A program made the position numbers and the translations under genes. From Natrinema salinisoli (GTDB taxonomy: Archaea > Halobacteriota > Halobacteria > Halobacteriales > Natrialbaceae), in assembly GCF_020405205.1 (NCBI RefSeq), contig NZ_CP084469.1, positions 1,550,001 through 1,614,000 on the forward strand: a stretch of 64,000 bases of DNA. The letters are read 5' to 3'. Of the stretch, positions 5,067-7,061 are shown in pieces. Each line of letters begins with the position of its first letter. The first letter of the stretch is position 1. The notes under the pieces are model-generated. The model ran no database searches and had not been told where the DNA came from. It saw only the letters and a list, made by a program, of their open reading frames with translations.

Positions 5067-5349
5067 CGGTCCCTCCCGACGTTGTGCCGCAGTCGTCGGA
5101 GTCGGGACTCGAGCGTGACCGGTATTCGAATGTGATTCTGTCGTCGTTCGAGGAGTTTATATTTCGGTGGAGGTAAGTGGAACATGGCTTGCAAACGGCT
5201 CACGTTTGGAAGCCAGCTCTCGGGTGTCCCATCACCCGGGGCATTTCACTGCATGCCCGCCGCTTCGTTGGAACTGCCTTCCGGATAAAAATTCTACAGG
5301 TGTGAACTTATATCTAGTGAAAGATTTGAATGATTAGTTTCTCGAAGGC

Positions 5350-5506
5350 AACACTGTCGTGTTCCCGGCTGTAGTTTTACACGGGACACTCGAGTACCGA
5401 CGCGGGAACCCGGAGCCGCCTCGTGGTGGACTCCCGGAACCGCGGTCCAGGTTTCGGCCGTTCTACAGGCGGAACAGGTCGAGTGCCTCGGGGCTTGACC
5501 CCGAGG
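5350..5506 (+). ncRNA. Putative solitary TnpB right-end/omega-RNA-like relic
   Basis: No protein is supported here. The segment ends in a hairpin (5485-5506, GCCTCGGGG-loop-CCCCGAGG) that matches, in the same direct orientation, the hairpin at the right end of the TnpB element (7039-7061). Both read GCCTCG.GGCTT.ACCC..GAGG. In IS605-type systems the end-proximal hairpin forms the 3' part of the omega-RNA and is followed by the guide. A second copy upstream of DUF2080-tnpB may be the right end of a lost element or a stand-alone guide RNA. This is inference from structure and orientation. Confidence 0.35.
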
Positions 5507-5558: not shown

Positions 5559-5588
5559 CAATACGCTTAAGTATATCCAAAGGATATA
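5559..5588 (+). promoter_or_regulatory. IS promoter with overlapping palindromic operator candidate
   Basis: CGCTTAAGTATATCC supplies a TATA-like box about 25 bases before the DUF2080 ATG. It overlaps a perfect inverted repeat, TATATCC-AAA-GGATATA (5572-5588). A dimeric AbrB-like protein encoded just downstream could bind it and repress the operon. A similar CAAT(A)CGCTTAA text occurs in the origin-located IS relic near 22546. Confidence 0.5.
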
Positions 5589-5595
5589 CACAGGT

Positions 5596-5751
5596 ATGGC
5601 GGATCGCTTTGAAATCGACGGCGAAGAAGTTCTCGACGGTGAGGTCAAACCATTCGGGAACAGTGCCCACGTCACCGTCCCGAAACGGTGGCGTGGAGCC
5701 GACGTGAAAGTCGTCCGAACATCAGAGCCCACCGAACCAGACGAAGGATGA
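5596..5751 (+). CDS. DUF2080-family transposase-associated protein (AbrB-like)
   Basis: A 51-residue protein with a short acidic start, the core VKPFGNSAHVTVPKRWRG, and a charged tail. The core resembles the swapped-hairpin AbrB/SpoVT strand-turn-strand (G-N-S-x-x-V-T-V/I-P-K). The family is found in haloarchaeal genomes directly before tnpB. Its TGA overlaps the tnpB ATG (ATGA), so the two are translated together. An inverted repeat in its own promoter suggests autoregulation of the element; that role is inference. Confidence 0.85.
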   Translation: MADRFEIDGEEVLDGEVKPFGNSAHVTVPKRWRGADVKVVRTSEPTEPDEG

Positions 5752-7028
5752 CCGACTCACAGGCTCTCGTCAAGACTCTCGACTTCCAACTCGACATCCG
5801 GAGTGACAACAAGAGCCTGCTGCACGACGCCTGCCTCGAAGCACGGTCGGCGTACAACGAAACCATCCGACTCGCCAAAGAAGGCGTGGACTGGGGCGCG
5901 ATTCCTGACCGCGTGGCCGACGACGCCACCCTCGTGAAGAACACGACACAACGTGTCGTCGCCAAAGCACTCGGGGCGATGGAGAACTACTACGAGTATG
6001 ACGACTTCGGCCAGCCGAGCCACATCAAGGACGGCGCGTACCCACTTCGTTCGAACTACGAGGAAGGGTACAACCTGTCGCTCACCGACGACGGCGACGT
6101 GACCTTCCGCATCAGCGCGAAACCCTACAAGCACATCAAAGGCGTCCTCAAAGGTGACGACACCCACCTCGATATTCTCAAGACGGCGCTCACGAGCGAC
6201 GAGTGGAAGATTGGGACGGCGGAAGCCTTGTTCCACAACGACAACCCTGAGTTGCACGTCAACGTCACCAACACCGAGCAGACCGTTCGAGACAAGCAGG
6301 ACTCGCGGACGGTCGTCGGTGTGGATGTGAACGAGGACAACGTGGCTCTGACTGCGCTCTCAGAGGATGGCGTTGAGGACTCGTTGGTTATCGACTTCCC
6401 CGAAATCAAGTTCGAGCGTCACCGCTACTTCACGATGCGGAAGCGCGTGCAAAACGCGGGGAAGGATAGCATCCACGACACACTCGAAGGGCGCGAAGAA
6501 CGGTTCGTCCGCGACCGACTCCACAAGGTGAGCCGTCACATCATGGAGTGGAGTCGTCAGTTCGAGAAGCCGTGCATCGTCTTTGAAGATCTCAAAGAGA
6601 TGCGCGACAGTATCGACTACGGCACGCGGATGAATCGACGCTTGCACCACCTCCCGTTCCGCACCCTCCAATACTACACGTCATACAAGGCGTCGTTCGA
6701 GGGGATTCCGACCGCGTGGATAAATCCCGAATACACGAGCCAAGCGTGTGCGCTCACCGACTGTGAGCATACCGAACGGGCGAACCGCCACAAGAAGCGG
6801 TTCAAGTGTCGCTCGTGCGGGCATCAAGACCACGCGGACAGAAACGCCAGCGTGAATGTTGCCAAGAAGGGGGCAAAGAAACTCAACTGGAATGTGCCTG
6901 CTCTCAACAGCCTCCCACAGGTACGGAAGGTGCGACGGCAGGCATCGGGGGTCGTGGACGCCCCGACCGTGACCCACGATACCGTTCGAGGTTATCAGAC
7001 CGATGGTGTCGTGGGAGTGTCCAACTAA
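5748..7028 (+). CDS. tnpB: TnpB RNA-guided endonuclease of an IS605-family element
   Basis: This 426-residue protein keeps the complete RuvC-like site: D193 in VVGVDVNED, E280 in IVFEDLKEMRD and D364 in DHADRNAS. A zinc-ribbon is formed by C334, C339, C354 and C357, inserted before the last aspartate as in active TnpB proteins. The N-terminal half has the usual wedge/REC-like region. Start 5748 is supported by the ATGA overlap with DUF2080. TnpB cuts DNA matched by an omega-RNA guide encoded at the element's right end and promotes retention of the element. No frameshift or missing catalytic residue is seen, so it may be functional. Confidence 0.95.
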   Translation: MTDSQALVKTLDFQLDIRSDNKSLLHDACLEARSAYNETIRLAKEGVDWGAIPDRVADDATLVKNTTQRVVAKALGAMENYYEYDDFGQPSHIKDGAYPLRSNYEEGYNLSLTDDGDVTFRISAKPYKHIKGVLKGDDTHLDILKTALTSDEWKIGTAEALFHNDNPELHVNVTNTEQTVRDKQDSRTVVGVDVNEDNVALTALSEDGVEDSLVIDFPEIKFERHRYFTMRKRVQNAGKDSIHDTLEGREERFVRDRLHKVSRHIMEWSRQFEKPCIVFEDLKEMRDSIDYGTRMNRRLHHLPFRTLQYYTSYKASFEGIPTAWINPEYTSQACALTDCEHTERANRHKKRFKCRSCGHQDHADRNASVNVAKKGAKKLNWNVPALNSLPQVRKVRRQASGVVDAPTVTHDTVRGYQTDGVVGVSN

Positions 7029-7038
7029 TCCACGGGAA

Positions 7039-7061
7039 GCCTCGAGGCTTAACCCAGAGGC
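7039..7061 (+). ncRNA. Right-end hairpin, predicted 3' scaffold of the omega-RNA
   Basis: GCCTC-GAGGCTTAACCCA-GAGGC forms a stem-loop eleven bases after the tnpB stop. By analogy with ISDra2-type systems the omega-RNA would run from within the 3' end of tnpB to this hairpin, with the following bases of flanking DNA (from about 7062) acting as guide. Ends are not experimentally defined. Confidence 0.45.

What the first reader, a model, noticed from the sequence alone, without database searches (positions are those of the whole stretch)
5559..5751. The tiny AbrB-like DUF2080 protein may repress its own element
A perfect TATATCC-AAA-GGATATA repeat overlaps the TATA box immediately before the DUF2080 gene. 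The protein's GNSAHVTVPKRW core resembles AbrB-type DNA binders. A self-limiting switch on TnpB expression would explain the constant pairing of the two genes.
Basis: inference. Interest (0 to 1): 0.5.

Follow-up and report, generated by a model that had tools for sequence, protein, structure and literature searches.

The report
Swappable built-in repressor of TnpB elements
A tiny gene in front of an RNA-guided DNA-cutting gene in salt-loving archaea most likely makes a protein that switches both genes off by binding a mirror-image DNA site at their shared promoter, and sister elements carry other, unrelated small regulator-like genes in the same place.

Summary
The inverted repeat is real: GTATATCC-AAA-GGATATAC at 5571-5589, overlapping the TATA box of the DUF2080-tnpB operon and unique in the 4.7-Mb genome (next best: 3 mismatches, at control level). 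In 129 unique haloarchaeal DUF2080 upstreams an 8-3-8 dyad peaks at -25..-7 from the ATG; at least 6 of 8 pairs match in 88 (7.1 expected; 12 in a control window). Pairs co-vary. Dyad sequence follows DUF2080 (partial r 0.58), not TnpB (-0.04). Sister tnpB elements without DUF2080 mostly lack it (5 of 44 reach 6 of 8 pairs) and carry other tiny genes in that place: of 110 tnpB loci, 63 have DUF2080, 40 a ribbon-helix-helix-like and 4 a VapB-like gene. Promoter and regulator are replaced together; the swap recurs at least 9 times on a 74-row TnpB tree. DUF2080 resembles AbrB/MazE at profile level (score 23 against at most 14 in 100 shuffles; probability only 42%). Best reading: an AbrB/MazE-type autorepressor of its element, in a slot that takes several antitoxin-type families. 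Pairing with tnpB is not constant. No binding or expression data.

The parts
5486..5506 (+). hairpin CCTCGGGG-CTTGA-CCCCGAGG, perhaps the element's left subterminal palindrome
   Evidence: I13; 17 of 21 bases equal those at 7040-7060 by eye; role inferred
5566..5576 (+). TATA-like box CTTAAGTATAT
   Evidence: sequence; TTAAGTA or TTTATG stands at this place in many relatives; named TATA from recall
5571..5589 (.). dyad GTATATCC-AAA-GGATATAC, proposed operator
   Evidence: conservation and covariation
5596..5751 (+). DUF2080 gene, 51 aa, AbrB/MazE-like, proposed autorepressor
   Evidence: pN/pS 0.11 among 44 relatives
5748..7028 (+). tnpB, 426 aa, RNA-guided nuclease family; starts in the ATGA overlap
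   Evidence: PF07282 59.2 bits, NF040570 133.5 bits; D193, E280 and D364 invariant in the 20 rows of A1, taken as the RuvC triad from recall
6892..7015 (+). sot2652-like RNA (sotRNA, omega-RNA type) over the tnpB 3' end
   Evidence: Rfam RF02657, 40.2 bits, E 9.9e-7, below its gathering score of 61
7040..7060 (+). right-end repeat CCTCGAGGCTTAACCCAGAGG
   Evidence: sequence, (I7); role inferred

Best explanation
DUF2080 is a very small DNA-binding protein of the AbrB/MazE (swapped-hairpin) kind. As a dimer or a pair of dimers it binds the 19-bp dyad (two half-sites, 11-bp pitch) between TATA box and start codon, shuts out TFB or RNA polymerase, and so holds down the DUF2080-tnpB operon that it is part of. 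The element thus limits its own RNA-guided nuclease, and a copy entering a cell without the protein would be briefly unrepressed. Shown: the dyad, its fixed place, its pair-by-pair covariation, its tracking of the DUF2080 sequence, its rarity in sister elements with other small genes, the overlap or near-overlap of the two genes, and replacement of promoter plus small gene as one cassette. Inferred: binding, dimer state, repression and its purpose.
For: Position: mean 4.98 of 8 symmetric pairs at -25..-7 against 2.07 (sd 0.45) over all offsets within 200 nt, in 129 upstreams; at least 6 of 8 in 88/129, 7.1 expected from shuffles, 12/129 in a window 80 nt upstream. Covariation: on 56 upstreams under 80% alike, the best axis pairs 69% of cells (all axes mean 27%, sd 9%; next best 46%); 304 paired cells, largest of 2000 shuffles 284. 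G-T cells are not favoured (26, 38.4 expected), nor A-C cells (21, 28.0 expected), which fits DNA rather than an RNA stem. Specificity, in 97 loci with complete TnpB: dyad distance follows DUF2080 distance with TnpB held fixed (partial r 0.577; 0 of 300 permutations as high) and not the reverse (-0.038); a neighbouring 19 bp follows both weakly (0.297, 0.193). The residue before VP sorts with the half-site (right arm, reverse complement), with exceptions: T (50 proteins) mostly GTATATCC, I (17) GTATAGAC or GTATATAC, L (32) mostly GTTTANAC, Y (25) mostly GTAGATAC or GTATCTAC. Of two viral-contig loci L294 (I) fits exactly, L295 (L) only in its first four bases. Control: at least 6 of 8 pairs in 5/34 promoters of RHH-like and 0/10 of RHH2 and VapB-like sister elements (6/34 if the RHH-like search is widened to -45). 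Cassette: in three pairs of elements with different small genes, 60-nt windows are 78-95% alike at -360..-241 and 75-98% from the tnpB start to +900, but 52-68% at -180..-1; two pairs with the same small gene stay at 82-98% there. DUF2080 under purifying selection (pN/pS 0.11). Fold: hhalign with an AbrB/MazE profile scores 23.1, P 2.6e-4; with the RHH-like profile P 0.3; 100 column-shuffled profiles at most 14.2.
Against: 41 of 129 dyads have fewer than 6 of 8 pairs; one subfamily (QFTINGHEV...) keeps little but the GT..AC edges of each half-site (4 of 8). L075, L121 and L012 show no clear dyad. Outside the order support is weaker: 18/48 against 8.1 expected and 8/48 in the control window. 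The AlphaFold2 monomer is poor (pLDDT 64.6) with no Foldseek match, and no PDB relative was found by sequence. hhalign probability is only 42%. In Halobacterium salinarum, passages of PMC10134880 report above-average mRNA for 33 mobile-element genes with 4 detected as protein (3 of them TnpB) and argue for post-transcriptional control; whether those tnpB carry DUF2080 was not looked up. In some searches the dyad of each locus was placed with the help of its symmetry, which favours high pair counts; searches do not do so per locus. Loci are related, so counts are not independent events.
Confidence: 0.76

Rival explanations
1. DUF2080 is first of all an antitoxin-like partner that binds and restrains the TnpB protein; the dyad is only its secondary autoregulation.
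For: Many antitoxins are AbrB/MazE or RHH proteins with autoregulation (recall). PMC10440598 lists DUF2080 (SpnP2, D146) among antitoxins of ten validated pairs with nuclease toxins (one passage). The alternative genes in the slot resemble antitoxin or partition DNA-binding families.
Against: Closely related TnpBs carry unrelated small proteins. A nearly identical DUF2080 (L067) sits with a TnpB only 24% identical to the window's, and one 77% identical (L118 type) with a TnpB 20% identical. Other DUF2080s precede IS66 transposase or methylase genes. A fitted protein interface would hardly survive such swaps.
Confidence: 0.11
2. The dyad is an RNA hairpin in the 5' leader that acts on translation or stability.
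For: As RNA the stretch folds well (z -2.94), as any perfect repeat would.
Against: It starts inside the TATA-like box, so with the usual 22-27 nt from TATA to start (recall) little of it would be transcribed; G-U type cells are not tolerated more than expected.
Confidence: 0.05
3. The dyad is the site of a host regulator or a two-way TATA promoter.
For: The arms contain TATAT, and the site overlaps the TATA-like box.
Against: Symmetry holds in arms without TATAT (GTATCTAC-CTC-GTAGATAC). Genome G183 carries three DUF2080 subfamilies with different dyads (L061, L073, L117). The dyad follows DUF2080 and is rare where another small gene stands.
Confidence: 0.05
4. The dyad is a transposition site, or just promoter conservation of a young repeat family.
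For: The elements are mobile and related.
Against: Candidate end palindromes lie elsewhere (5486-5506, 7040-7060); symmetric cells exceed all 2000 shuffles, and a neighbouring stretch follows DUF2080 less.
Confidence: 0.03

Closest known systems
AbrB/MazE/SpoVT (swapped-hairpin) DNA-binding antitoxins
   Same: core VKxxGNSxxVxVPKxW ... GxxVKV; profile match in the expected register; dyad at own promoter
   Different: shorter between the PK and the last strand, no long tail for toxin binding, partner is a nuclease or transposase gene of a mobile element
DUF2080 family transposase-associated protein (NCBIfam NF033496, Pfam PF09853)
   Same: full member, over both cut-offs
   Different: the entries' names give only a transposon association, no function
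Type II toxin-antitoxin operons
   Same: tiny DNA-binding-type gene first, overlapping or touching the second gene; regulator families swap
   Different: toxicity of TnpB and its neutralisation by protein contact are not shown; swaps argue against a fitted interface
Repressors of transposons (such as IS1 InsA) and C proteins of restriction systems (recall)
   Same: self-limiting control of a DNA-cutting gene
   Different: different folds; here the guarded gene is an RNA-guided nuclease
TldR, TnpB-derived RNA-guided transcription factors (recalled; title seen only in a reference list)
   Same: TnpB-related gene control
   Different: there TnpB itself became the repressor; here a separate tiny protein is proposed

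Membership tests
DUF2080 (PF09853 / NF033496) | match over curated cut-off | tested here: met
   28.3 against 21.5 bits; 68.3 against 22 bits
AbrB/MazE swapped-hairpin superfamily | profile similarity beyond chance in the canonical register | tested here: met
   score 23.1, P 2.6e-4; reversed profile P 0.37; 100 shuffled profiles at most 14.2; but probability only 42%
AbrB/MazE swapped-hairpin superfamily | swapped-hairpin dimer fold | tested here: inconclusive
   monomer model pLDDT 64.6, no Foldseek hit
Autorepressor | conserved operator-like site at own promoter | tested here: met
Autorepressor | binds operator and lowers expression | not testable with these tools
   needs gel shift and reporter
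Type II toxin-antitoxin system | two-gene operon, small DNA-binding-type gene first | tested here: met
   of 97 loci with a complete TnpB, gaps of -4, 0 or 3 nt in 81
Type II toxin-antitoxin system | second protein toxic and neutralised by the first | not testable with these tools
   no assay; regulator swaps speak against a fitted contact
RNA-guided nuclease TnpB | TnpB profile and RuvC acidic residues | tested here: met
   NF040570 133.5 bits, cut-off 100; D193, E280, D364 invariant in 20 sequences; triad identity recalled
Ribbon-helix-helix (first alternative gene, SIRDDQEEW type) | match to an RHH family | tested here: inconclusive
   CcdA E 0.027 and 0.042 in 2 of 4 proteins, below cut-off; hhalign with an RHH_1 profile P 0.007, probability 5% (one of its 29 rows, L329, is wrongly cut), with AbrB P 0.42; AlphaFold2 poor
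Ribbon-helix-helix (second alternative, MTKRLSVDF type) | match to an RHH family | tested here: met
   ParG 25.7 and 24.9 bits, cut-off 21.4, in 2 of 2 proteins scanned of 6 loci; RHH_1 20.1 bits in one, cut-off 20.5
VapB antitoxin PF02697 (third alternative) | match over cut-off | tested here: not met
   20.8 and 21.0 bits, cut-off 27.9, E about 6e-4, in 2 of 2 proteins scanned of 4 loci; called VapB-like only

The most novel reading that the evidence does not exclude
Haloarchaeal tnpB elements carry a near-obligatory slot for an interchangeable antitoxin-type autorepressor. Operator and repressor are exchanged as one cassette among at least four small-protein types while the nuclease stays, so RNA-guided nucleases are genetically handled like toxins or restriction enzymes. 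A naive cell or new copy gets a burst of TnpB before repressor builds up (zygotic induction), which would help the element spread. Within DUF2080 one strand residue (T, I, L or Y before VP) reads the half-site, a simple recognition code.
Probability: 0.35. Interest if true: 0.8.

Novelty: new variant of a known kind. Interest (0 to 1): 0.62.

Why it matters
It gives a concrete, cheap-to-test function to a family known only as DUF2080. It suggests that transposon-borne RNA-guided nucleases come with dedicated transcriptional control, which bears on how TnpB can persist without harming its host. It also offers a set of tiny repressors with matched operators that work (if confirmed) in archaea at high salt.

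Tried and rejected
Sequence and fold searches for a solved relative gave nothing usable; the AlphaFold2 monomers of DUF2080 and of the RHH-like protein are too poor to use. An RNA-hairpin reading was tested through G-U tolerance and not favoured. A single conserved dyad for the RHH-like promoters was looked for and not found. Direct repeats there (at least 6 of 7 matched bases in 24 of 34, 15% in shuffles, 2 of 34 in a control window) do not set them apart, for DUF2080 promoters reach the same in 79 of 129. The sigma-70 scan is not suited to archaea and found nothing. Rows dropped before counts: L197, L200 and L201 had no DUF2080 hit by my profile; nine hits were skipped for lack of a usable start or 200 bases upstream, L137 with a visible dyad among them; duplicates by the last 60 bases upstream were counted once; six short TnpBs were left out of the trees; L316 was dropped from the AbrB profile and L331 from the RHH_1 profile.

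Full report
What is there. The window lies in a 4.7-Mb haloarchaeal genome (unnamed; haloarchaeal by its relatives and its proteins; size). At 5596-5751 stands a 51-aa DUF2080 gene, overlapped by tnpB (5748-7028) through ATGA. A sotRNA (omega-RNA-type) match below its gathering score covers the tnpB 3' end, and similar palindromic repeats lie at 5486-5506 and 7040-7060 (likeness by eye). Between or overlapping the TATA-like box and the ATG lies GTATATCC-AAA-GGATATAC (5571-5589). It is the only such site in window and genome below 3 mismatches. This genome has one DUF2080 match at E 0.001. Its TnpB search returned seven matches, of which I examined only the one in the window.

Is the dyad conserved? 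NF033496 matches 165 of 392 genomes of the order and 105 of 392 in a phylum-wide draw that includes the order. I fetched loci from the listed part of these matches, found the genes with a profile and kept 177 unique upstreams: 129 from the order and 48 from outside it, split by profile score. In the 129, symmetry of the 8-3-8 form peaks at -25..-7: 4.98 of 8 pairs against 2.07 on average. At least 6 of 8 pairs match in 88/129, against 7.1 expected from shuffles and 12/129 in a window 80 nt upstream. Forty-one fall short, among them a subfamily that keeps little but the GT..AC edges of each half-site.

Same symmetry, different letters. The site is GTATATCC-AAA-GGATATAC in the window's subfamily (also GTATATAC-ATT-GTATATAC, L004), GTATCTAC-NNN-GTAGATAC in two others, and elsewhere GTTGAAAC-AAA-GTTTAAAC, GTATATTC-CGC-GCATATAC (L002) or CTATATGT-ATA-GCATATAG (L193). 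On 56 upstreams under 80% alike, aligned without structure, the best axis pairs 69% of cells (all axes 27%, sd 9%). Paired cells number 304 against at most 284 in 2000 shuffles. G-T cells are not favoured, so the symmetry looks like DNA symmetry.

What does the dyad follow? In 97 loci with complete TnpB, dyad distance follows DUF2080 distance when TnpB is held fixed (0.577; 0 of 300 permutations) and not the reverse (-0.038). A neighbouring 19-bp stretch follows both weakly. A nearly identical DUF2080 (L067) sits with a TnpB 24% identical to the window's, and the L118 type (77% identical DUF2080) with one 20% identical. The residue just before VP sorts, with exceptions, with the half-site: T (50 proteins), I (17), L (32), Y (25). 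Phylogeny is not controlled in that table, so it is a lead. A viral-contig locus fits it exactly (L294) and another in part (L295).

The control that changed the picture. From 80 named tnpB loci (the best 80 matches to an alignment of DUF2080-associated TnpBs, so not a random sample), 44 have DUF2080 (L278 apparently truncated), 34 have another tiny gene ending in a stretch like SIRDDQEEWIQENHLNLSSFVQEKLDELIEERS, one has none that I recognised (L276, its tnpB short) and one starts too near a contig end (L259). That gene looks like a ribbon-helix-helix protein, on weak evidence. It matches 54 of 146 genomes, with TnpB directly behind it in 26 of 30 fetched. Of the 30 fetched loci nearest to the window's own TnpB (the window's among them), 18 have DUF2080 by motif, L393 has it before a further small ORF, six have a clear RHH protein (ParG over cut-off in the two scanned), four a VapB-like one (below cut-off), and L403 none that I recognised. 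Together, of 110 loci: 63 DUF2080, 40 RHH-type, 4 VapB-like, 2 none recognised, 1 cut off.

Swaps. On a 74-row TnpB tree (73 rows labelled) the label changes 12 times, at least 9 forced by well-supported branches; on a 196-row quick tree 20 times, at least 7 forced. Pairwise profiles show where: in three pairs with different small genes, 60-nt windows are 78-95% alike at -360..-241 and 75-98% over the first 900 nt of tnpB, but 52-68% at -180..-1, promoter plus small gene; the -240 window is mixed (42-78%). Two pairs with the same small gene stay at 82-98% there. With the small gene the dyad mostly goes too: at least 6 of 8 pairs in 5/34 and 0/10 of those promoters. RHH-like promoters have direct repeats (24/34 by one measure), but DUF2080 promoters reach the same measure in 79/129, so that is no distinguishing mark.

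The protein. DUF2080 is under purifying selection (pN/pS 0.11, 806 pairs of 44 genes). Its profile (59 sequences) matches AbrB/MazE-family domains from genomes of the same order, with VKxxGNSAHVxVPKxW on KVxxKGxVxLPKxxR. The score of 23.1 exceeds 100 column-shuffled profiles (at most 14.2), a reversed one and the RHH-like profile, but the probability is only 42%. Structure prediction did not help. PMC10440598 (one passage) names DUF2080 among antitoxins in validated pairs.

Beyond haloarchaea. None of the 48 other DUF2080 genes had a TnpB behind it by my profile in the fetched stretch, which is short in a few. Of these 48 I named the partner of six: IS66 transposases (L189-L191), a DDE transposase (L188) and DNA methylase-type proteins (L149, L159). 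Dyads are weaker there overall (18/48, 8.1 expected, 8/48 in the control window), though clear before the IS66 genes (AGATATCT-AAT-AGATATCT).

Mechanism and doubt. The simplest account is autorepression by occlusion of the TATA-to-start region. Swapping of unrelated small proteins before closely related TnpBs argues against a fitted antitoxin contact. The main contrary datum is from Halobacterium salinarum, where mobile-element mRNAs are above average, 4 of 33 proteins (3 of them TnpB) were detected, and control is argued to be post-transcriptional (PMC10134880, passages). PMC12558985 (passages) says that there tnpB and omega-RNA profiles are inverse and TnpB is scarce or undetected. Binding and repression remain to be shown.

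Literature. DUF2080 occurs in one paper of the held library. Searches pairing tnpB with AbrB, ribbon-helix-helix, antitoxin, VapB/CopG, regulators and autorepression listed nothing whose title or abstract start reports this slot or operator. I read passages of six papers only (PMC10440598, PMC8303175, PMC12558985, PMC10544981, PMC13092281, PMC10134880); the rest were seen as search listings. Only open-licence papers are held.

Noticed in passing
L189, L190, L191 (also L188, L149, L159): Outside the order, DUF2080 genes stand before IS66 or DDE transposases or DNA methylase genes, with GATATC-type dyads before the IS66 ones; the family may guard several kinds of DNA-acting enzyme.
   Followed up: partly
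window 5486-5506 and 7040-7060: Left- and right-end palindromes share 17 of 21 bases (by eye), as expected for IS200/IS605-type ends (recall); no tnpA was seen in the unit.
   Followed up: no
window 6892-7015: Match to the sot2652 sense-overlapping RNA family below its gathering score, likely the element's omega-RNA.
   Followed up: partly
L393 upstream of tnpB: A zinc-ribbon-like ORF (CYICGETSD...CPDCQKKN) sits between DUF2080 and tnpB.
   Followed up: no
G413, G491 and G700: Multiple DUF2080 matches (six, six and fourteen; some in G700 with stops), suggesting solo or decaying elements in other archaea.
   Followed up: no
promoters of RHH-like tnpB elements, such as L216, L218, L255: Direct repeats such as TGCGCATA..TGCGCATA..TGCGTAT or TTTGTGTAgTTTGTGTA near the start, perhaps operators of the RHH-like proteins.
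   Followed up: partly
window 5292-5300 and 5460-5468: TTCTACAGG occurs twice upstream of the element; possible boundary or remnant.
   Followed up: no
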